Of a DNA stretch of 40,650 nucleotides, positions 30,072-40,358 are shown one piece after another. The notes beneath the pieces are model-generated. The model was not told the origin of the DNA. It worked only from the letters and a program-made list of their open reading frames with translations, and made no database searches. The position numbers and the translations under genes are program-made. The DNA comes from Chloroflexota bacterium. GTDB taxonomy: Bacteria; Chloroflexota; Anaerolineae; Anaerolineales; Anaerolineaceae. The first letter of the stretch is position 1, and the number at the start of each line of letters is the position of its first letter. The stretch covers positions 1 through 40,650 of the forward strand of contig JAJYIW010000005.1 of NCBI GenBank assembly GCA_021789855.1, written 5' to 3'.

Positions 30072-30683
30072 TTACTGAGGCTGGCGTTTACGGAGCAGGC
30101 CGGGGATGAACATGGGTGTATGCAAGCGGTAATCCTGGTAGGCCTGGCCGAAACGCTGGACTAATTTTTTCTCTTCCAGGATGGCTCCCACCACGATGTA
30201 GCCGCTCAAGCCCAGGTATAGGATCAGCAAGCCCTGCGTCATGATGGGTGTAAGCCAGATGAAAAGCAAGCCGAAAGTGTACAGGGGATGCCGGATCCAG
30301 CGATACAACCCAACCGTGACCAGTTGGCCTTCCTCCTGGGTCAGGGAGCCTGGGGGAGTGAACCATTGGCGCAGGCCGATAAAGGCCAGGGCGCCGGTTT
30401 GCCATACCCCTGCCAACAACCCAAGCCCGGATAATCCCTGTAAGAGAAGGGTGAGGGCAACCCATGGATACGGTATCCGGTAAAGGACGCGATCAGGAAA
30501 CCAAAGGGGCAGGAAGAGGATGGGCACCAGGGTGACGACCGAGATGATGGTAAATAGCAGGCGGTATAGGCGCCTCGCGTTCCCTCCAAACCGGGCTTCC
30601 GCCCATCTTTTGAGCCAGAAGGATGCCAGCAGAGAATGAACGGCGCCATATACGATGACAGCCAGGAGGATGGCGATAATCAT
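30072..30683 (-). CDS. Membrane methyltransferase, isoprenylcysteine carboxyl methyltransferase/PEMT-like
   Basis: The 203-residue protein has about five hydrophobic segments and the C-terminal ICMT/PEMT pattern: GLYRWIRHPLYTF, then EEKKLVQRFGQAYQDY. Members transfer a methyl group from SAM to lipid-linked or small hydrophobic substrates at the membrane; the substrate here is unknown. NnrU-type proteins are a related possibility. The frame opens at 30743, but a TATAAT seven bases before the ATG at 30683 and the hydrophobic start MIIAILLAVIVYG support the shorter form. comEC follows. Confidence 0.8.
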   Translation of the reverse strand: MIIAILLAVIVYGAVHSLLASFWLKRWAEARFGGNARRLYRLLFTIISVVTLVPILFLPLWFPDRVLYRIPYPWVALTLLLQGLSGLGLLAGVWQTGALAFIGLRQWFTPPGSLTQEEGQLVTVGLYRWIRHPLYTFGLLFIWLTPIMTQGLLILYLGLSGYIVVGAILEEKKLVQRFGQAYQDYRLHTPMFIPGLLRKRQPQ

Positions 30684-30690
30684 AGACGAA

Positions 30691-30696
30691 ATTATA
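30691..30696 (-). promoter_or_regulatory. -10 box of the membrane methyltransferase promoter
   Basis: TATAAT on the minus strand is followed by seven bases and the ATG at 30683, which predicts a leaderless mRNA. No ribosome binding site is seen upstream. Confidence 0.55.
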
Positions 30697-30829
30697 AAGC
30701 GATTCGGCTGGTCGCCTGGTAGAATGTATATCCCTGCTTCCATTCAAAAGACGTGGAGGAGATTGGCAAATTAGGTGGGAATGGGTAGAATCAGCTATTA
30801 TTCATACTTACAGGAAGGATGAGAATGGT

Positions 30830-31779: not shown

Positions 31780-33141
31780 ATGAATGAGCGCTTGCCTTTA
31801 CGTACCAAGCTGGCTTATGGGTTTGGCGATATGGGCTTTAGCCTGACTTCGACCATCATTGGGGCTTATTTCGCCATCTTCCTGACCGATGTGGTTGGCA
31901 TTCTGCCTGCCACAGCAGCGGCGGCTATCTTCATCGGGCGTACCTGGGATTACATCAATGACCCCATGGTCGGCTATCTTTCGGACCGCACCCGGACGCG
32001 TTGGGGCCGGCGGCGCCCGTTCATTTTATTTGGCGCGATCCCCTTTGCCCTGGCTTATGTCTTGATGTGGTACCGCCCGCCTCTCGCCAGCCAGGTGCTG
32101 CTGGCGGCTTATTATGCCTTTGCCTATATCCTTTTTGATACGGCGGCCACCGTGGTGTATATGCCGTATTATGCCCTGACCCCTGAGCTCACCTCCAACT
32201 ATGATGAGCGCACATCCCTATCCACTTACCGTATGTTCTTCTCCATATTGGGTGGCCTGGTCGCGTTCACCATCCCACTGCTGATTATTGGCGCCTTCCA
32301 ACCTGAAAATGCTCCTCGCATCTTGTTAATGGGCGTCATTTTCGCGGCAGCCAGCGCCCTGCCGATGTTCGTGGTATTTTTTGGCACGCGCGAGCGCCCG
32401 GAGTTTTCTGAGCTAAAAGAACCCGGGCTGCGGGATTCTTTAAAGGCAGCCGTCAAAAACCAGCCTTTCATTTTTGGTGCGGTGATCTTCCTTCTCACTA
32501 TGGTTTCCATCGATATCCTGGAAACCACCCTGTTGTATTTCATCAAGTACGTGGTGCAGCGTGAATCGCAAAGTGACCTCATTATGGCGATCATTTTTGT
32601 AGTCGCAATCTTATTCCTCCCGTTTTGGGAATGGACATCTCGGCGCTGGAATAAGCGCCTTGCCTACTGCGCCGGCATTGCTTTCTGGGCGGTTGTGCAG
32701 ATCGTGATGATCTTGCTGAACGCCGCTACCCCGCTGAGCATCATTCTTTTCCTGTGCTTCCTGGCAGGAATTGGGGTCAGCTCAGCCCACGTGCTGCCCT
32801 GGTCGATCATTCCGGATGCCATCGAATGGGATGAGTGGCAAACGGGTGAGCGCCACGAGGGCATGTTCTACAGCCTGGTTACCCTGTCTCAGAAAGTGGC
32901 TTCGTCTATCGCCATCCCATTAATTCTGCTGATCTTACAGGTCACCGGGTATGTTCCCACGGCGCAAACCCAACCGGCCAGTGCGCTCCTGGGCATCCGG
33001 CTGGCCATCGGCCCCATCCCTGCGCTGCTTCTTTCCGGCGGCATTCTCTTCTCTATCCTTTATCCCCTCAGCCGTGAAAGTCACCAGCGCATCGTGAGAG
33101 AACTGGAAGCGCGGCGAGCGGCGCAAAAGGCGGGCGCATGA
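31780..33141 (+). CDS. GPH family (MelB-like) sugar:cation symporter
   Basis: The 453-residue membrane protein begins LRTKLAYGFGDMG and has the GPH motif WDYINDPMVGYLSDRTRTRWGRRRPFIL. It has about 12 helices and the late IEWDEWQTGERHEGMFYS segment typical of this family. Members carry glycosides, pentosides or hexuronides with Na+ or H+. AAAGGG is nine bases before the ATG at 31780; the frame opens earlier, inside the terminator region. It is the first gene of a seven-gene run and its stop overlaps the GNAT start as ATGA. Confidence 0.88.
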   Translation: MNERLPLRTKLAYGFGDMGFSLTSTIIGAYFAIFLTDVVGILPATAAAAIFIGRTWDYINDPMVGYLSDRTRTRWGRRRPFILFGAIPFALAYVLMWYRPPLASQVLLAAYYAFAYILFDTAATVVYMPYYALTPELTSNYDERTSLSTYRMFFSILGGLVAFTIPLLIIGAFQPENAPRILLMGVIFAAASALPMFVVFFGTRERPEFSELKEPGLRDSLKAAVKNQPFIFGAVIFLLTMVSIDILETTLLYFIKYVVQRESQSDLIMAIIFVVAILFLPFWEWTSRRWNKRLAYCAGIAFWAVVQIVMILLNAATPLSIILFLCFLAGIGVSSAHVLPWSIIPDAIEWDEWQTGERHEGMFYSLVTLSQKVASSIAIPLILLILQVTGYVPTAQTQPASALLGIRLAIGPIPALLLSGGILFSILYPLSRESHQRIVRELEARRAAQKAGA

Positions 33142-34280
33142 ACGCCCCGGTGGTGGTCAGGCCGGTTCGCACCCCGCAGGAACGCAAGCTGTTCCTGACG
33201 TTCCCCTGGCGCATTTACCAGAATGATCCCTTGTGGGTCCCGCCGTTGTTGCCGGACTGGCAAGAGCGCATCGACCCGGCGCGCGGGATCTTTTTCAAAC
33301 GGGGCACCGCCGATTTCTTCATCGCCTGGCAAGGGGATCGGCCCGTTGGGACGGTCTGCGCCGCGGAAGACCGCGACGCCAACGCGGAGCGCGGCGTGCA
33401 CGAGTGTGTCTTTGGCTTTTTCAACTTTATTGAAGATTACGGCGTGATGGAGGCCCTCTTGGCCCAGGTCAAGGAATGGGCAGTGCAGCACGGGCTGGAC
33501 GCGCTGACCGGGCCTTTTAACCTGGATTATGAGGATGCTTACGGCATCCTGGTGGATGGGCGCGACCGCCCGCCGGTTTTGTTGTGTGGGCATACTCCGC
33601 CTTACTACCTGGATTATGTGTTGCGCTATGGGTTTAAACCCATTCGCGGTGAAAACCTGGCTTTTGCACTGGATATCACCGAAGACACGCCGGCTTTCCA
33701 GGAACTGAGCCGGATGGCGGAGAGGGTGCGCCGGCACAACCGGTTCAAGGTGCGCGGAGGGGATATGGCCCATTGGGAGGACGAGCTGGAGAAGATTTAC
33801 GTTCTGCTCAATATTGCCCTCAGGCACCTGCCGGATTATCGCTCGTGGCCGCGCGACGTGGTCTTCAACAGCCTGGCGCCCTTTCGGCGGATTGCCGACC
33901 CGGAGCTGATCCTGTTTGCCGAAGAAGGCGACCGCACGGTGGGCTGGTTCCCCGGGCTGCCTAATATCAACGAAGCGTTCATCCACGTGGATGGGCTGCG
34001 CCACCCGTGGGATTACCTCAAGCTGGCTTGGTATATGCGCCAGCACACCCAATGTCTGACGGTCAAAAGCGTGCTGGTTTTGCCGGAATATTGGGGCAGC
34101 GGCGTAGCCATCCTATTATTCGATGAGATGTTAAAACGGGCCAGGGCGCGCGGTTATCGCTGGATCGACCTGTCCCTTACCTCGGACGATAACCCGCGCA
34201 CGCCACAGCTCGCGACCCGTTTTGGAGCGAAGATTTACAAGCGCTACCAGGTGTACCGCCTGCCCATCGAGGCGAATTGA
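33138..34280 (+). CDS. GNAT-like acetyltransferase, YghO-type
   Basis: The 380-residue protein has an N-terminal domain with WRIYQNDPLWVPPLL and GPFNLDYEDAYGILVDG, and a C-terminal GNAT fold with the acetyl-CoA loop VLPEYWGSGVAILL at about 314-327 and the ending ATRFGAKIYKRYQVY. It resembles large uncharacterised GNAT proteins such as YghO. The substrate is unknown. The ATG overlaps the symporter stop by four bases. Confidence 0.75.
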   Translation: MNAPVVVRPVRTPQERKLFLTFPWRIYQNDPLWVPPLLPDWQERIDPARGIFFKRGTADFFIAWQGDRPVGTVCAAEDRDANAERGVHECVFGFFNFIEDYGVMEALLAQVKEWAVQHGLDALTGPFNLDYEDAYGILVDGRDRPPVLLCGHTPPYYLDYVLRYGFKPIRGENLAFALDITEDTPAFQELSRMAERVRRHNRFKVRGGDMAHWEDELEKIYVLLNIALRHLPDYRSWPRDVVFNSLAPFRRIADPELILFAEEGDRTVGWFPGLPNINEAFIHVDGLRHPWDYLKLAWYMRQHTQCLTVKSVLVLPEYWGSGVAILLFDEMLKRARARGYRWIDLSLTSDDNPRTPQLATRFGAKIYKRYQVYRLPIEAN

Positions 34281-34312
34281 CATTCCGAATTTCTTGACCC
34301 TAAAGGAAAGAT

Positions 34313-34906
34313 ATGGCTGAAAACCCCTATGATTACGAAAATCGGACTGGCGTCCATCCTGTTTCGTGGGAAAACTTTCATGGCTTATGTAAGGGGCTGG
34401 TCGTGGCGATATCCCCTTTTGAGGCGGATATCATCCTTCCGATCGGCCGGGCGGGTTATTATCCCGGCACGCTCATCGCTAATATGCTGCAGGTCGAAAT
34501 CTATCCCATCCGGCTTTCACGGCGGGTCAAGGATGTGGTCACTTACCAAAGCCCACAGTGGATTTTAGAACCGCCAACCATCGTGAAGAACCGTCGGGTG
34601 GTAATTGTCGATGAAATTTGCAGCACCGGTGAGACCATCACTTTGGTTAAGCAGGAAGTGATCGCGATGGGAGCGCAGGCCGTTAAGAGCGCTGTTTTAT
34701 ATGCGCACACCAGGGGAGCGGCAGTGCCCGATTATGTGGGCTTGATCACGGATGAGTTAATTCTCAACCCATGGGACCGAGAAATATGGAAGGATGGCAA
34801 GTTTCAATTTCACCCTGAATATGCGGAGGCTCTGCGGCAACAGGGATTGAGTGCGGATACCTCGTATTTAATTCCGGCGGGCATCCTGGAAATAGCCAAA
34901 GGATAA
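34313..34906 (+). CDS. Phosphoribosyltransferase family protein
   Basis: The 197-residue protein has the PRPP-binding motif VVIVDEICSTGET at 96-108 in a type I phosphoribosyltransferase fold, with ILPIGRAGYYPGTLIA earlier as the pyrophosphate loop. The acceptor base cannot be read; the hood does not clearly match pyrE, hpt or apt. AAGGAAAG is close to the ATG. It stands 32 bases after the GNAT gene. Confidence 0.8.
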   Translation: MAENPYDYENRTGVHPVSWENFHGLCKGLVVAISPFEADIILPIGRAGYYPGTLIANMLQVEIYPIRLSRRVKDVVTYQSPQWILEPPTIVKNRRVVIVDEICSTGETITLVKQEVIAMGAQAVKSAVLYAHTRGAAVPDYVGLITDELILNPWDREIWKDGKFQFHPEYAEALRQQGLSADTSYLIPAGILEIAKG

Positions 34907-34933
34907 GGCGTGACCTTTACCAAGGAGGATCAT

Positions 34934-35833
34934 GTGTTTTCAATCCATGGCGCCTGGCCGACTATGGTGACGCCTTTCAATCAAGATCTCCAGGTTGACC
35001 TGGGAATTTACCGGGACATGATCGGATGGTACGCGGCGCATCGCGCCTCCGGGTTGTATGCCAACTGCCTTTCCAGCGAGATGTTTCACCTGACGCCCCA
35101 GGAACGATGGATGCTGGCGCGCGAAGCGGTGGCGGCCGCCAATGGCCGACTGCCGGTTGCGGCGACAGGCAACCTGGGTTCTACCTTTGAGGAACAGGTC
35201 GATTCGTGCCGGCAGGCGGCAGATGCCGGGGCAGATATTGTGATGCTGGTGGTGCCCAAGACATTGAATACCGATGATGAGCTCGAGCGGTATTACCTGT
35301 CTATCGCCGAAAAGGTGCCATCGCCGTTAGGGTTGTATGAGTGCCCGGTGCCGCGCAATTTTCACCTGAGCGTGGAATTAGTGGGCCGGCTGGCACAGAC
35401 CGGGCGGTTCGTGGCTTATAAAGAAACGAGCTGCGACCTGGAAAAGATTCGGGCGCTGCTGGACGCAATCCGCGGAACGCCCCTGGCATTGATGCAAGCC
35501 AACACGCCTTATTTGCTCGATGCGGTGCGCGCCGGGGCGCCGGGCTCGATGAGCATCGCCGCGATCTGGCTGCCTGACCTGGCGGCTGAGGTGATCGAGC
35601 AAGCCAGGGCCGCCGGCCCAAGGGCTGACCAGCTTCACGCCGGCCTGTGTGCCATGGAGCTGGCGCAGCGCGCCGTACACCCGGTGGGGTCCAAGTACCT
35701 GCTGGGCCGGCGCGGCGTCCCCATCAGAATGGAAAGCCGGTCAGCCGCTCCTTTGCATGCTGAGGAGATACGCGCGCTGGGATATGCCGCTCAAACCTGG
35801 CTGGACGAGCGTGGGGAATTGCGGGTGTTATGA
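34934..35833 (+). CDS. Dihydrodipicolinate synthase/N-acetylneuraminate lyase superfamily protein
   Basis: This is a TIM-barrel class I aldolase of 299 residues with the Schiff-base lysine K163 in AYKETSCD and the catalytic tyrosine Y135 in GLYECPVP. The usual GTTGE loop reads CLSSEMFHLT, so it is probably not a true DapA or NanA; the substrate is unknown. I chose GTG at 34934, five bases after AAGGAGG. The frame also opens with GTG at 34910, just three bases after the previous stop. The stop overlaps the next start as ATGA. Confidence 0.82.
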   Translation: MFSIHGAWPTMVTPFNQDLQVDLGIYRDMIGWYAAHRASGLYANCLSSEMFHLTPQERWMLAREAVAAANGRLPVAATGNLGSTFEEQVDSCRQAADAGADIVMLVVPKTLNTDDELERYYLSIAEKVPSPLGLYECPVPRNFHLSVELVGRLAQTGRFVAYKETSCDLEKIRALLDAIRGTPLALMQANTPYLLDAVRAGAPGSMSIAAIWLPDLAAEVIEQARAAGPRADQLHAGLCAMELAQRAVHPVGSKYLLGRRGVPIRMESRSAAPLHAEEIRALGYAAQTWLDERGELRVL

Positions 35834-36516
35834 AGGTTAACCGGGCTGATTTGTCGAATTGCCACCTGGCGCGGGGTTGGGTGGTGGCCATCGATGTGCT
35901 GCGCGCTTTTACCACGGCGGCTTACCTTTTTGACGCGGGTGTGACGGAAATTATCCTGGCCTCCGGCGTAGAGGAGGCCTTCAAGCTGCGCGAGGCAATG
36001 CCAGATTGCCTGATCCTGGGTGAAGTGGATGGGATCAAAGTAGCGGGATACGACCTGGGGAATTCGCCCACCGAAATATTGGCGCATGATCTGCAAGGGC
36101 GGCGGCTGATCCAGCGCACCACCGCCGGGACGCAGGGGGTCATGCGGGCGCTTCACGCCCAGGTCATCCTGGCGGCTTCCCTGGTCAACGCTGCGGCCAC
36201 GGCGCGCTACCTGGCCCGGTGCGCCCCAGAGGAAGTGACCCTGATCCAGACCGGGTTGTTCCCGGGAGAAGGCTATGGCGATGAGGATGTGGCCTGCGCC
36301 GACCTGATTGAAAACCGCCTGGCTGGTAAGGAGATGATCCTGGCGACGATCGAGCAACGCGTGCGCTGCTCCCGTTCCGGGTTGCATTACGACGGCACGC
36401 GACCGGATTTCCCCCCTTCTGACCTCGATTATGCCTTGCGTTTCGACCAGTTCGACTTCGCCATGCGGGTCGAACGCCGGGAGACGCTGGCCATCTTGCG
36501 CGCTATTCCTACCTGA
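35830..36516 (+). CDS. 2-phosphosulfolactate phosphatase (ComB) family protein
   Basis: The 228-residue protein shows the ComB pattern: VVAIDVLRAFTTAAYLF at 18-34, LGNSPTEI at 77-83 and QRTTAGTQGVMRAL at 95-108. ComB removes phosphate from phosphosulfolactate in coenzyme M synthesis, but family members are common in bacteria without coenzyme M, where their substrate is unknown. There are no comA or comC partners here. It is coupled to the DHDPS-like gene by a four-base overlap. Confidence 0.85.
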   Translation: MKVNRADLSNCHLARGWVVAIDVLRAFTTAAYLFDAGVTEIILASGVEEAFKLREAMPDCLILGEVDGIKVAGYDLGNSPTEILAHDLQGRRLIQRTTAGTQGVMRALHAQVILAASLVNAAATARYLARCAPEEVTLIQTGLFPGEGYGDEDVACADLIENRLAGKEMILATIEQRVRCSRSGLHYDGTRPDFPPSDLDYALRFDQFDFAMRVERRETLAILRAIPT

Positions 36517-36529
36517 TGCAGGCGAGACA

Positions 36530-37531
36530 GTGAATGAGCTTGCGGACCGTCTTCAAGGTTACCTTGCGGATCGCTACTCTGGCGCCAGGGTAAGCGATTT
36601 TCATTTTATAGTTCACGGCTTTGAAAGTGATATTTACACATTTGTGTTTCACCCCGCCGGAGAGGGTCCAAGGCTGCTCATTCTACGGGTTTATCCTGGC
36701 GATGGCGTTATCGAGAAGCAGCAACGAGAGGTGAACGGCTTACGCTGGCTCTACCGGGCCGGGTTTCCAGTCCCCGCCTTTTTTTGCTATGAAACCGACC
36801 CCACTTATCTGGGGAGGCCATTTACCATCATGGAGAGGATAGAAGGGCGGCTGTTGAGACCTTTATTGGATCAGGTTGCGCCTTCGCGAGCGCGCGATCT
36901 GATCGATCAGTTTAGCGCCCTCCTGGCCCGCCTGCACCAGCTGGAATGGCGTCTTTTCACCGACCAGGCTGCCCGGCATGAATCGAATCCGGCTGCCTGG
37001 TTGGATGATACAATAGATCATCTGCACCAATTGTACGCAAAGTATAATCTGCCGGGTTTTACGAAAATACTCGGATGGCTGGAATTCCATAAGGCAGGGC
37101 TCGACATGCAGCTGGTTGTGGCTCACCTCGACTACCATGCCAGTAATGTGATTCTGCGCGGGGACGGCAGCATGGCGGTGATTGATTGGTCGCGAGTTGG
37201 CATCGCGGATTACCGGGCAGATTTGAGTTGGACGATGATGATCATGGGCGATTATGGTCAACCTTATTGGCGGGAGCAAATTTTACGCGCTTACTCCCTG
37301 CACTCTGGAAAGTCAATTGAGGATCTTGATTATTTCAACATCCTTACCGATCTAAAGTCCCTGACTGACACGGTGATTTCACTGAAGGCGAGTCCAAAAG
37401 CATTGGGGCTAAACCCTGCCAGGGCCGAGACGGTGGAGCAAGAAGCCCCTAATATTCAGAGATTGTTGAGGCGAATCCGGGACATCACGGGTATCGAAAT
37501 CCCTGAGGCGAAAGAGTTACTCACTTTTTGA
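36530..37531 (+). CDS. Aminoglycoside phosphotransferase (APH) family kinase
   Basis: The 333-residue protein has the APH/choline-kinase catalytic loop AHLDYHASNVIL (H199, D201, N206) and the Mg-binding VIDWSRVGIAD (D219). It should phosphorylate a small hydroxylated molecule. The expected ATP lysine appears as Arg in ILRVYPG. No resistance is implied: most members of this superfamily phosphorylate metabolites. The start is most likely GTG at 36530, 13 bases after the ComB-like gene, because the frame upstream runs inside that gene. Confidence 0.78.
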   Translation: MNELADRLQGYLADRYSGARVSDFHFIVHGFESDIYTFVFHPAGEGPRLLILRVYPGDGVIEKQQREVNGLRWLYRAGFPVPAFFCYETDPTYLGRPFTIMERIEGRLLRPLLDQVAPSRARDLIDQFSALLARLHQLEWRLFTDQAARHESNPAAWLDDTIDHLHQLYAKYNLPGFTKILGWLEFHKAGLDMQLVVAHLDYHASNVILRGDGSMAVIDWSRVGIADYRADLSWTMMIMGDYGQPYWREQILRAYSLHSGKSIEDLDYFNILTDLKSLTDTVISLKASPKALGLNPARAETVEQEAPNIQRLLRRIRDITGIEIPEAKELLTF

Positions 37532-38793
37532 ATGATATGCAGACGCAATCCAGCCACCAGGGCACCCATCAAGTGTCTATCTTCCGCCAGGTGTTGCGGC
37601 GGGATAAGATCGCGCTCAGCCTGATTTTTTTGATTATGTTGATGGATGTGGTAGGGATGACCATCCTGTTCCCTATCTCCGCCTATGTGGTCCAGCAGTA
37701 TAGCCATGAGGCATTGATGGTCACCTTGCTCAGCGTGAGCTATGCCGCTGCCCAATTTTTTGCCGCACCGGTGTTGGGAAAAATTAGCGACCGGGTCGGA
37801 CGTCGCCCGGTGTTATTGGTTTGCCTGGCTGGCGCCGGCGCAGGTTACCTGATGTTCGGATTGGGCGGCGCGCTGTGGGTGTTGTTGCTTTCTCGCGTGA
37901 TTGCCGGGATTACTGGCGGGAGTATTTCCACCGCCTCGGCTTATATCGTGGATTCGTCCAAGCCCGAGGAGCTGGCTAACGCCTTTACGCTGGTGGGAAT
38001 GGCCTGGGGGATCGGGCTGGTGCTAGGGCCGGCCCTGGGGGGCGCGTTGGGCCAGTTCAACTTGCGCGCACCGGCCTTTTTCTCGGCAGTCCTGGCCATG
38101 GTAAACATGGTGCTGGCCATCTTTTACCTGCCAGAATCGTTGCCTAAAGAACGGCGCGAAACCCGTTCGATGCGGCTGTCTGACTTCAACACTTTCCAAT
38201 CCATCGGCGCTATGGGTCGCCTGCCGGGGTTGGCCGTAGTACTGGCCGTGACGTGCCTGTTCAACTTCGCCTTCAATGCGATGAACAGTACAGAGACTTT
38301 GTTTATCATCCGGCGCTTTGCAGCAGAGCCCTGGCAGATCGGTTTGATGACCATGCTGGCGGGCATTGCTATTGCTGTGGTCCAGGCGTTGTTCGTCGAC
38401 CGCCTGGTAGCTCGCCTGGGCGAGGCAGGCGTCGCGTTTATTTGCCTGTTGCTGCAGATGGCCGGTGCGCTATTGATGGTGTACAACTATGTTTTTGTGA
38501 TGATCTACCCCATCGTGGTTTTACGATCCGCTGCCAGTGGCTTCATCTTCCCCACGCTGGGCACGCTTAGCGCGAAACGCGTGTCATACCGCGAGCAAGG
38601 CTTGTTGATGGGTGTGACTACCTCTTTAAATAGCCTGATGGGCATCATCAGCCCGGTACTGGCAGGGCTGTTGTATGATCATTGGTCGCCAGGGGCGCCC
38701 TACTGGCTGGCAGCAGTTTTTTTCGTGGCCGGGGCTTTCTTGCTCAGGCTCAGCCGGCCGCTGGCGCCGCGCCTGGATAAGGCGGTTTCGTAA
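37528..38793 (+). CDS. MFS transporter, DHA1/TetA-like
   Basis: The 421-residue protein has about 12 helices with motif A GKISDRVGRRPVLL, motif C-like GIGLVLGPALGGALG, and the first-helix LIMLMDVVGMTILFPI. It probably exports a small molecule. The ATG overlaps the stop of the APH-like gene by four bases, so export may be linked to the phosphorylated or otherwise modified product of this operon. It is the last gene of the run. Confidence 0.87.
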   Translation: MNDMQTQSSHQGTHQVSIFRQVLRRDKIALSLIFLIMLMDVVGMTILFPISAYVVQQYSHEALMVTLLSVSYAAAQFFAAPVLGKISDRVGRRPVLLVCLAGAGAGYLMFGLGGALWVLLLSRVIAGITGGSISTASAYIVDSSKPEELANAFTLVGMAWGIGLVLGPALGGALGQFNLRAPAFFSAVLAMVNMVLAIFYLPESLPKERRETRSMRLSDFNTFQSIGAMGRLPGLAVVLAVTCLFNFAFNAMNSTETLFIIRRFAAEPWQIGLMTMLAGIAIAVVQALFVDRLVARLGEAGVAFICLLLQMAGALLMVYNYVFVMIYPIVVLRSAASGFIFPTLGTLSAKRVSYREQGLLMGVTTSLNSLMGIISPVLAGLLYDHWSPGAPYWLAAVFFVAGAFLLRLSRPLAPRLDKAVS

Positions 38794-38851: not shown

Positions 38852-39268
38852 ATGGATGAGGTCAATCTATCGCCTGACCAACGCATTGCATTTGATGCCA
38901 TTGTTTGGGAGATCGCCCGGCAGGTGCCTTCAGGCCAGGTGACCACCTACGGCCAGGTGGCAAGCTATATTCCTTGCCCGGAAGGTGTCTCGCCCGAGGT
39001 TTACCCATTCTACCGGGCACGCTGGGTCGGGAACGCCATGGCCGCCTGTCCGGAGGACGTCCCGTGGCAGCGCGTGATCAATGCGCAGGGAAAAATCAGC
39101 CTTCGTCGTGGCGCTGAGAAGCAACGCCAGTTGTTAGAAAAAGAGGGGGTGGTTTTTGATCCGCACGATCGGATTGACCTGGCGCACTTTGGCTGGCGTG
39201 GGCCGTCCGACGACTGGCTGAAATCACAAAACCTGGTACGTCCCGATGGCCAGCTTTCCCTTTTTTAA
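38852..39268 (+). CDS. Alkyltransferase-like protein (MGMT family without the reactive Cys)
   Basis: The 138-residue protein has the DNA-binding domain of O6-alkylguanine-DNA alkyltransferase: VPSGQVTTYGQVASYI at about 25-40, VGNAMAACPEDVPWQRVI and GKISLRRG. The alkyl-acceptor PCHR motif reads PWQR (Trp72), as in ATL proteins, which bind alkylated guanine and flag it for nucleotide excision repair. The Arg finger position holds R54 or R56. The start MDEVNLSPDQ follows a leaderless promoter. Confidence 0.87.
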   Translation: MDEVNLSPDQRIAFDAIVWEIARQVPSGQVTTYGQVASYIPCPEGVSPEVYPFYRARWVGNAMAACPEDVPWQRVINAQGKISLRRGAEKQRQLLEKEGVVFDPHDRIDLAHFGWRGPSDDWLKSQNLVRPDGQLSLF

Positions 39269-39299: not shown

Positions 39300-39311
39300 C
39301 GATGATAATAT
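39283..39311 (+). promoter_or_regulatory. Promoter of the LacI-family regulator gene
   Basis: TTGACG (39283-39288) and TAATAT (39306-39311) are spaced by 17 bases. Transcription would start near 39318, inside the operator-like dyad. Confidence 0.55.
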
Positions 39312-39324
39312 GGTAACGTTATCA
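39311..39324. promoter_or_regulatory. LacI-type operator over the regulator's own promoter
   Basis: TGGTAACGTTATCA is a 14-base dyad around a central CG, with a single mismatched pair from perfect symmetry (TGATAACGTTATCA). LacI/GalR proteins favour such sites. It covers the expected transcription start, so binding would block the gene: simple autorepression. Confidence 0.6.
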
Positions 39325-39350
39325 TAAAGAATTGGAAATGACGGTTTCAA

Positions 39351-40358
39351 ATGCCCACCATCCATGATGTTGCCCGAGAAGCTGGTGTTGCCCCGATCAC
39401 GGTTTCGCGGGTGATCAACAACAAGAATTATGTGGCTGAGGAGACGCGTAAGCGGGTCAACGCTGCTATCCAGCGCCTGGGATACCTGCCTAATTCCCTG
39501 GCGCGCAGTTTGCGCTCCCATAAGACACATATCCTGGCTTTGGTCCTGGCGGATATCACCAATCCCTTCTGGACCACCGTGGCCCGGGGAGTTGAAGACG
39601 CCGCCAGTGAAAATGGTTTTAACGTGATCCTGGTCAATACCGATGAATCCGAGATTGAACAAAAGCGTCACCTGCAAGCTGTGCTGGAAAAACAGGTCGA
39701 TGGGCTGTTGCTGGCGCCGACCGGCGATCCATTCCAGGCAATCGACATGATTCGGGCCCAGGGTGTTCCGCTGGTTATCCTCGACCGGCGACCGCCTGGC
39801 CCTCTCGCCGTGGATGTGGTGCGCTGTGATTCGGAAGGTGGCGCTTACGCCATGACGCAATATTTGTTCTCCCTGGGCCATCGCGCGATCGCGATGATGT
39901 GTGGGCCGTGTGGCGTTTCCACCTCCGACGATCGCGTGTCAGGCTTTCAACGTGCTTACCAGGCGGCGGGATGGACGCCCGGGCCCATCCAATATGGTGA
40001 ATTTACTGTTGAGAGCGGTTACGCGATGGCTAATAAGGCTTTGGAAGCTACGCCCCGCCCCACGGCCCTATTTGCCGGGAATAACTTTATTGCGATGGGG
40101 ACGCTTAAGGCTTTGCGCGATGCTGGCCTGCGCGTCCCAGAGGATGTCAGTGTGGTTGGTTTCGATGATTTACCTCAGGCGCTGGTCGTGGAGCCCTTCC
40201 TGACGGTGGTATCCCAGCCCGCTTACCTGATGGGCCATAAGGGGAACGAGGTTTTGATTGCGCGCTTGTCCGGACTCGCGCCTGAAACGCCTGAGGAAAT
40301 TATCCTGCCCACTCAAATCATCCAACGCCGTTCAACGGCGGCCATTCTTCCACAGTAA
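39351..40358 (+). CDS. LacI family transcriptional regulator
   Basis: The 335-residue protein has a LacI helix-turn-helix (TIHDVAREAGVAPITVSRVI at 3-22), the hinge YLPNSLARSLRS, and a periplasmic-binding-protein-like sensor domain (ALVLADITNPFW, VDGLLLAPTG, VSVVGFDDLP). It probably senses a sugar and controls the adjacent epimerase gene and itself. A weak GGAA lies before the ATG at 39351. Confidence 0.93.
   Translation: MPTIHDVAREAGVAPITVSRVINNKNYVAEETRKRVNAAIQRLGYLPNSLARSLRSHKTHILALVLADITNPFWTTVARGVEDAASENGFNVILVNTDESEIEQKRHLQAVLEKQVDGLLLAPTGDPFQAIDMIRAQGVPLVILDRRPPGPLAVDVVRCDSEGGAYAMTQYLFSLGHRAIAMMCGPCGVSTSDDRVSGFQRAYQAAGWTPGPIQYGEFTVESGYAMANKALEATPRPTALFAGNNFIAMGTLKALRDAGLRVPEDVSVVGFDDLPQALVVEPFLTVVSQPAYLMGHKGNEVLIARLSGLAPETPEEIILPTQIIQRRSTAAILPQ

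What the first reader, a model, noticed from the sequence alone, without database searches (positions are those of the whole stretch)
31780..38793. Uncharacterised seven-gene operon from sugar symporter to exporter
GPH symporter, GNAT, phosphoribosyltransferase, DHDPS-like lyase, ComB-like phosphatase, APH-like kinase and MFS exporter are linked by three four-base ATGA overlaps and short gaps. The set has an importer at the front, chemistry in the middle (Schiff-base aldol, phosphorylation, dephosphorylation, acyl transfer) and an exporter at the end. I know of no named pathway with this set. It could make and export, or salvage, a small phosphorylated metabolite.
Basis: partly seen in the sequence, partly recalled or inferred. 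Interest (0 to 1): 0.62.

Follow-up and report, generated by a model that had tools for sequence, protein, structure and literature searches.

The report
Lipid-type transporter paired with N-acyltransferase
Only the first two of the seven genes form a unit that other bacteria keep: a transporter that resembles the animal carrier of single-chain lipids more than any sugar pump, next to an enzyme related to bacterial ceramide synthases, so the pair may move and re-acylate a membrane lipid.

Summary
The seven ORFs exist at the stated coordinates, co-oriented and tightly packed. There are two ATGA overlaps and one TTGA, not three ATGA. As a seven-gene pathway the cluster was not found elsewhere: in 41 fetched neighbourhoods only GPH and GNAT recur together.

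That pair is strongly conserved. Of 26 relatives of the GNAT at 49% identity or more, 21 have the GPH next door on the same strand, across seven families and two orders (one of the other five is cut by a contig end). Two genomes pair the GPH with a different GNAT subfamily in swapped order.

"Sugar symporter" is probably a mislabel. The transporter scores 190.9 bits with zebrafish MFSD2A and 116-154 with six E. coli GPH proteins, which score 21-79 with MFSD2A. MelB's sugar-site residues are mostly gone, yet many MFSD2A headgroup residues are missing too. The GNAT is homologous end to end to YghO and to enzymes inside sphingolipid clusters.

Best reading: a two-gene, LplT-Aas-like module that flips a single-chain amino-lipid and N-acylates it. 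Linkage is well supported; substrate and chemistry are inferred.

The parts
31780..33141 (+). GPH/MFS_2 family symporter of the MFSD2A-like branch; first gene of the conserved pair
   Evidence: PF13347 E 2.7e-102; TIGR00792 302.3 bits over cut-off 231.35; PDB sequences: MFSD2A 1.3e-55 against MelB 3.5e-27, the reverse order for UidB; bit table; tree
33138..34280 (+). Long (380 aa) GNAT, YghO / bacterial ceramide synthase-like N-acyltransferase; second gene of the conserved pair, ATGA overlap with the first
   Evidence: PF00583; 24% identity over 377 columns with E. coli YghO, E 2e-33; adjacent to GPH in 21 of 26 relatives; tree
34313..34906 (+). Type I phosphoribosyltransferase; not linked to the pair elsewhere
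   Evidence: PF00156; closest homologue 76% in L015, there in one ORF with a DegV domain; no strong hit to any other of the seven in that neighbourhood
34934..35833 (+). DHDPS/NAL family aldolase or lyase, subfamily unknown
   Evidence: PF00701 E 3.3e-26; dapA equivalog 89 bits against cut-off 206; 5 of 151 order genomes at E <= 1e-20, own included
35830..36516 (+). ComB (2-phosphosulfolactate phosphatase) family protein
   Evidence: PF04029 E 1.1e-41; homologous to the solved ComB-family proteins 2z0j, 1vr0 and 2yyv; 14 of 151 order genomes, own included
36530..37531 (+). APH-fold small-molecule kinase, HLDYHASN catalytic motif present
   Evidence: PF01636 E 8.4e-30; translation (motif meaning recalled)
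37528..38793 (+). DHA1-type MFS efflux transporter, Tet-like but below the Tet cut-offs
   Evidence: PF07690 E 5.3e-48; tet_MFS_A_B_C_D 223 bits against cut-off 475

Best explanation
The conserved unit is the GPH-GNAT pair, and the five genes behind it are a lineage-specific addition to its transcript. The pair most likely works like LplT-Aas: the GPH protein, of the branch that holds the animal lysolipid symporter MFSD2A, uses the Na+/H+ gradient to flip a single-chain amphiphile that carries an amine (a lysolipid, sphingoid base or N-deacylated lipid) across the cytoplasmic membrane, and the ceramide-synthase-like GNAT N-acylates that amine with a fatty acyl group on the inner face. Shown here: the ORFs, the conserved adjacency, the affinity to MFSD2A, the end-to-end homology of the GNAT to YghO and to enzymes inside sphingolipid clusters. 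Inferred: that the substrate is a lipid, the direction of transport, and the N-acylation. The role of PRT, DHDPS, ComB, APH and MFS stays open; co-transcription here may mean they act on the same or a linked metabolite.
For: Adjacency: 21 of 26 GNAT relatives at >= 49% identity, same strand, match-to-match gap 14-68 nt in 18 and 213-296 nt in 3; families f1, f2, f5, f8, f12, f14, f22. No other gene family recurs in more than 7 of the 31 neighbourhoods plus window compared, so this is not long shared synteny. Two genomes (L131, L132) pair the same GPH clade with a GNAT of another clade, order swapped. Transporter: MFSD2A outranks MelB by 28 orders of magnitude in E, the reverse holds for UidB; 190.9 bits against zebrafish MFSD2A, 116-154 against six E. 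coli GPHs, which score 21-79 with MFSD2A; the tree splits MFSD2A plus the Anaerolineae GPHs from the six, 100/99; M181 and I333 of MFSD2A are kept in 14 and 16 of 16 and in 0 of 6 E. coli GPHs. GNAT: YghO homology; yghO is listed as the acyl-CoA N-acyltransferase gene for dihydroceramide in PMC9386255 (passages); 3 of 3 named plasmid relatives opened sit in clusters with sphingolipid or envelope-lipid genes; the sister clade L097, L099 lies beside an acyl-AMP ligase; L132 has a PlsC-type acyltransferase gene directly upstream.
Against: Nine of the MFSD2A pocket or gate residues checked (Y50, Q51, Q149, Q152, D174, F312, Q345, F396, T432) are kept in 0 of 16, and the essential glutamate (E309 here, E312 in chicken) in 7 of 16, the rest Gln, so the substrate cannot be assumed to be lysophosphatidylcholine. 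The window GNAT is a divergent clade, 24% to YghO, and no SPT or reductase lies beside the pair in any of the fetched pair loci, save a weak EPI hit (27%, E 1e-9) in L051. Four relatives have the GNAT without the GPH (G079:C6, G125:C24, G071:C18, G520:C12) and three have the GPH without a GNAT (L135, L136, L137). GPH relatives at 32-36% on three plasmids of other phyla sit near esterases or serine hydrolases (2 of 3) and not near a GNAT. The tree has long branches at MFSD2A and MelB.
Confidence: 0.42

Rival explanations
1. The pair handles a soluble amino compound: the GPH imports an amino sugar or glycoside and the GNAT N-acetylates it.
For: GPH is by name a glycoside-pentoside-hexuronide family and the protein passes TIGR00792; GNATs are mostly acetyltransferases; plasmid GPH relatives lie near esterases and hydrolases.
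Against: K18, D19, Y120, D124, W128 and W342 of MelB are replaced in the window protein (residue roles from PMC8329300 passages), although one search also says that these are only conserved among MelB orthologues. The transporter is nearer to MFSD2A than to any of six E. coli GPHs. The GNAT is homologous end to end to YghO, not only in the acetyltransferase core.
Confidence: 0.25
2. All seven genes are one pathway in this lineage, from import through aldol chemistry and phosphorylation to export.
For: Gaps of -4 to 32 nt with no room for promoters at most junctions.
Against: No relative has two of the seven together except GPH-GNAT, apart from weak 24-25% GPH-like hits 2-4 kb from the PRT in L058 and L060. 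ComB, APH and PRT relatives sit in unrelated contexts.
Confidence: 0.15
3. A resistance or detoxification cluster: GNAT and APH modify, Tet-like MFS expels a toxic compound.
For: APH and Tet family similarity.
Against: Neither reaches the resistance cut-offs (APH(3') 62 against 205 bits; Tet 223 against 475). The GNAT is linked to GPH, not to APH or the Tet-like MFS, elsewhere.
Confidence: 0.06
4. The ComB gene marks a sulfolactate or coenzyme M branch and the cluster belongs to it.
For: ComB family match.
Against: ComA (PF02679) is absent from the own genome and over cut-off in 4 of 101 relatives searched; ComB equivalog cut-offs are not reached.
Confidence: 0.04

Closest known systems
LplT-Aas lysophospholipid flipping and re-acylation system (E. 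coli; PMC11416262, passages read)
   Same: Two adjacent genes, an MFS transporter and an acyltransferase; the proposed logic is flip, then acylate.
   Different: Neither protein is of those families here: the transporter is GPH/MFS_2 and the enzyme a GNAT that would acylate an amine, while Aas is an acyl-ACP synthetase plus glycerolipid acyltransferase. [quoted passage not shown]
MFSD2A, Na+-dependent lysophosphatidylcholine symporter (PMC10167227 and PMC10250862, passages read)
   Same: Best match among solved structures by sequence; Na+ site Asp pair, R180, W400, E421, K433 equivalents kept in 16 of 16 (most of these also in E. coli GPHs); M181 and I333 shared specifically.
   Different: Nine headgroup or gate residues differ in all 16; the essential Glu is Gln in 9 of 16. 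About 30% identity to the zebrafish protein.
YghO / Aca / bCerS, bacterial ceramide synthase (PMC9386255 and PMC11334938, passages read)
   Same: Homology over the whole length; 14 positions near-invariant across 39 rows that include YghO and an SPT-linked homologue.
   Different: Separate clade (100/100), not beside SPT and reductase genes; the same order also has members beside SPT (L103).
MelB / UidB sugar symporters
   Same: Same GPH family and Na+/H+-site residues D55, D59, K377.
   Different: Most sugar-site residues absent; 22-24% identity.

Membership tests
GPH symporters (TIGR00792, PF13347) | Score over the curated cut-off | tested here: met
   302.3 bits against 231.35; PF13347 342.9 against 27
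MelB-type sugar symporter | Sugar-site residues K18, D19, Y120, D124, W128, R149, W342 | tested here: not met
   Window has F, S, A, Y, Y, M, H in those columns. The R149 column may be shifted by one, since an Arg stands next to it.
MFSD2A-type lysolipid symporter | Closer in sequence to MFSD2A than to sugar GPHs | tested here: met
   190.9 against 116-154 bits. Of the 16 pair-clade GPHs in gph.fa, L048 scores slightly higher with YagG (169.3 against 166.0).
MFSD2A-type lysolipid symporter | Headgroup-binding residues of the zwitterionic traps and the essential Glu | tested here: not met
   Nine residues 0 of 16; Glu 7 of 16 though present in the window protein
MFSD2A-type lysolipid symporter | Transports a lysolipid | not testable with these tools
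   No assay
Bacterial ceramide synthase (YghO/Aca/bCerS) | End-to-end homology | tested here: met
   377 columns, 24% identity, E 2e-33
Bacterial ceramide synthase (YghO/Aca/bCerS) | Gene beside spt and/or reductase | tested here: not met
   Absent from the window and the pair loci; one weak EPI hit (27%, E 1e-9) in L051. PMC11334938 notes that co-localisation is not required.
Bacterial ceramide synthase (YghO/Aca/bCerS) | N-acylates a long-chain base | not testable with these tools
   No assay
LplT-Aas | Bicistron of MFS transporter and acyltransferase | tested here: met
   Layout only
LplT-Aas | Aas domains (PlsC-type acyltransferase and AMP-binding) | tested here: not met
   The second gene is a GNAT
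ComB, 2-phosphosulfolactate phosphatase | Equivalog score and ComA in the genome | tested here: not met
   At most 96 bits against cut-offs from 175 up; no ComA in the own genome. The Pfam family itself is met.
APH(3') resistance kinase | NCBIfam cut-off | tested here: not met
   62.2 against 205 bits
Tet(A/B/C/D) efflux pump | NCBIfam cut-off | tested here: not met
   223.2 against 475 bits
DapA, dihydrodipicolinate synthase | NCBIfam cut-off | tested here: not met
   89.1 against 206.15 bits

The most novel reading that the evidence does not exclude
Anaerolineae carry a bacterial counterpart of MFSD2A/MFSD2B that works with a ceramide-synthase-like N-acyltransferase: a Na+-driven flippase and N-acylase for sphingoid bases or other amino-lysolipids, a second and unrelated solution to the LplT-Aas problem, built from parts of which one is the bacterial branch nearest to the animal lysolipid symporters.
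Probability: 0.3. Interest if true: 0.78.

Novelty: new variant of a known kind. Interest (0 to 1): 0.5.

Why it matters
If true, it gives a genetically simple bacterial model for MFSD2-type lysolipid transport, a function known from animals, and it points to a lipid-salvage or remodelling step in Anaerolineae, a class tied to unusual ceramides in the Black Sea (PMC11334938, passages). It also corrects a likely annotation error: transporters of this clade are named sugar symporters by family default. If false, the conserved two-gene linkage still defines a testable transporter-enzyme pair.

Tried and rejected
One seven-gene pathway: rejected as a conserved unit because PRT, DHDPS, ComB and APH relatives sit in unrelated neighbourhoods.

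Coenzyme M or sulfolactate link: no ComA in the own genome.

LacI regulation of the cluster: a near-palindrome ATGGTAACGTTATCAT lies at 39310-39325 before the LacI gene, and no second copy within 3 mismatches exists in the window, so nothing ties it to the GPH promoter.

Presence of SPT as proof of sphingolipids: 145 of 151 genomes match at E <= 1e-40, own genome included, but the match cannot tell SPT from KBL or BioF (family knowledge, recalled), and the neighbours in L138 are not reductase or ceramide synthase genes.

Structure prediction was not run: its stated rule admits only window sequences and loci from other tools than the one that gave the relatives, and a single-sequence fold would be weak.

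The one genome-contig scan used the PRT and found one locus. The MFS exporter gene was not used as a genome-wide query; it was only sought in the fetched loci.

Papers: searches. In the listings I saw no paper on a bacterial MFSD2-like and GNAT pair; this is limited to those searches and that library.
Full report
What is there. The window is one whole contig (C60) of a 3.4 Mb draft genome; the related named locus L015 is an Anaerolineae MAG. With the starts I prefer the gaps are -4, 32, 27, -4, 13 and -4 nt; two overlaps are ATGA and the third is TTGA, or absent if the MFS gene starts at the ATG at 37537. The DHDPS gene most likely starts at GTG 34934 behind AAGGAGG. A shared transcript is plausible; the consensus scan is too weak to prove it.

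Is the seven-gene set conserved? I searched the same draw of 151 genomes of the order with six of the seven proteins. Matches, own genome included: ComB in 14 of 151, DHDPS in 5 of 151 at E <= 1e-20, APH in 13 of 151 at E <= 1e-10, a PRT in 127 of 151 but a close one (E < 1e-30) in only four, GNAT in 104 of 151 at E <= 1e-10, GPH in 71 of 151 at E <= 1e-40. I fetched 40 neighbourhoods plus L015 and searched them with ten window proteins. The 15 GNAT loci (L045-L057, L083, L084) gave GPH next door in 14; the fifteenth, L049, ends at the contig edge. The 13 ComB loci, 7 APH loci, 2 DHDPS loci and 4 PRT loci gave no second member of the seven, except weak GPH-like hits (24-25%, E about 1e-8) 2 to 4 kb from the PRT in L058 and L060. 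So the linkage that other genomes keep is GPH-GNAT, and the five genes behind it are a local addition as far as the search reached.

How strong is the pair? Using coordinates relatives have a GNAT at 49% identity or more; 21 have the GPH upstream on the same strand, one is cut by the contig end (G130), and four lack it (G079:C6, G125:C24, G071:C18, G520:C12, all family f12). The 21 cover families f1, f2, f5, f8, f12, f14 and, in another order of the class, f22. In a comparison of all ORFs around 31 such loci and the window, the GNAT and GPH families stand out and the next family recurs in 7 loci, so the linkage is not a by-product of long synteny. In G054 and G079 the same GPH clade lies next to a GNAT of a different clade, with the order reversed. 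A second pairing of this kind argues for a functional tie. Against it, three GPH genes of the clade have no GNAT neighbour (L135, L136, L137).

What the transporter is. The closest solved sequences are MFSD2A proteins (E 1.3e-55 to 2.2e-50); MelB follows at 3.5e-27. As a control, the glucuronide symporter UidB ranks MelB first (1.5e-36) and MFSD2A far behind (1.5e-16). In a direct comparison the window protein scores 190.9 bits with zebrafish MFSD2A and 116.1 to 153.9 with six E. coli GPH proteins; the six score 21.0 to 78.0 with MFSD2A. The 15 other pair-clade GPHs in that table score 157.8 to 188.5 with MFSD2A; in one of them, L048, YagG is slightly ahead (169.3 against 166.0). Two other GPH paralogues of the own genome score 124.8 and 69.4. 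A tree separates MFSD2A and the Anaerolineae proteins from the six with 100/99 support, with a warning on long branches. MelB's sugar residues K18, D19, Y120, D124, W128 and W342 are replaced, and the cation-site Asp pair and Lys are kept (roles from PMC8329300 passages). MFSD2A's own pocket is only partly kept: D87, D91, R180, I333, W400, E421 and K433 in 16 of 16, M181 in 14, the essential Glu in 7 (window included), but Y50, Q51, Q149, Q152, D174, F312, Q345, F396 and T432 in none (roles from PMC10167227 and PMC10250862 passages). D91, K433, R180, W400, D87, E421 and Y425 are common in the E. coli proteins too and so say little. The fair statement is: a transporter of the MFSD2-like branch with a pocket of its own.

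What the enzyme is. The GNAT aligns over 377 columns with E. coli YghO (24%, E 2e-33). PMC9386255 lists yghO as the acyl-CoA N-acyltransferase gene (aca) for dihydroceramide (passages); in BL21(DE3) it stands beside fatty acyl-AMP ligase, epimerase, ACP and spt genes. Full-length relatives on three named plasmids that I opened (of 42 records with a match) lie in comparable clusters: Rubrobacter radiotolerans (SPT-like, GNAT, reductase), Pseudomonas sp. BYT-5 (SPT, ACP, epimerase, acyl-AMP ligase, GNAT, LptF/G, acylglycerol kinase family) and Sphingomonas parapaucimobilis (desaturase, GNAT, LptF/G). The order itself has GNATs of this family beside SPT: L103 with an epimerase-type gene between, and by coordinates G100:C52 and G092:C112. 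In a tree of 39 rows the window clade, the SPT-linked clade and YghO lie on one side of a 100/100 split; the window clade is its own 19-row group, with L097 and L099, which lie beside an acyl-AMP ligase, in its neighbourhood. So the window enzyme is a divergent member of the ceramide-synthase-like GNATs, not a proven ceramide synthase.

How it may work. A transporter of the MFSD2-like branch beside an N-acyltransferase of the ceramide-synthase type matches the logic of LplT-Aas, where a transporter flips a lysolipid and the partner acylates it, the two genes being adjacent (PMC11416262 passages). I therefore propose flip-then-N-acylate of an amino-lysolipid. The layout and the families are shown; substrate, direction and reaction are inferred. 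One supporting oddity: in G079 a PlsC-type acyltransferase gene stands directly upstream of the swapped pair, and members of that family occur in two more of the neighbourhoods, farther away. One adverse fact: plasmid GPH relatives at 32-36% in cyanobacteria and Caulobacter are not near a GNAT and in two of three cases lie near esterases or serine hydrolases.

The other five genes. The PRT's nearest homologue (76%, L015) is one ORF with a DegV domain. The DHDPS, ComB, APH and Tet-like MFS proteins reach Pfam cut-offs but none of the equivalog or resistance cut-offs shown. ComA is absent from the genome. I cannot assign them a pathway.

Verdict. Observation mostly right, seven-gene pathway not supported, a conserved two-gene module found within it. 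Interest is moderate: the pair makes a clear and cheap test possible, but the lipid reading rests on homology and linkage alone.

Noticed in passing
window 30072-30743 (-): PEMT/ICMT-like membrane methyltransferase (PF04191) divergent from the cluster, with a peptidyl-prolyl isomerase gene between.
   Followed up: no
window 39310-39325: Near-perfect palindrome ATGGTAACGTTATCAT just before a LacI/PurR-type regulator (39351-40358), probably its own operator; no second copy in the window.
   Followed up: partly
window 38852-39268 (+): MGMT-like (alkyltransferase-like) gene directly behind the seven genes (PF01035); the strand run continues through it.
   Followed up: no
L015:947-2497: Phosphoribosyltransferase 76% identical to the window's, in one ORF with a DegV domain, 516 aa.
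   Followed up: partly
L073, L074, L075: ComB-family gene, ECF-type sigma factor and DegV gene in a row in three genomes of one genus.
   Followed up: no
L103:510-4117: SPT, epimerase-type reductase and YghO-like GNAT in a row: a likely ceramide gene cluster in the window's order.
   Followed up: partly
L133:4139-9953: In G327 the pair lies in a minus-strand run of five overlapping genes with a LysM protein and two proteins without Pfam match.
   Followed up: no
L058, L059, L060: PRT homologues (36-40%) lie near a MoaA-type radical SAM gene, with a tRNA-editing-domain gene or a HAD hydrolase nearby.
   Followed up: no
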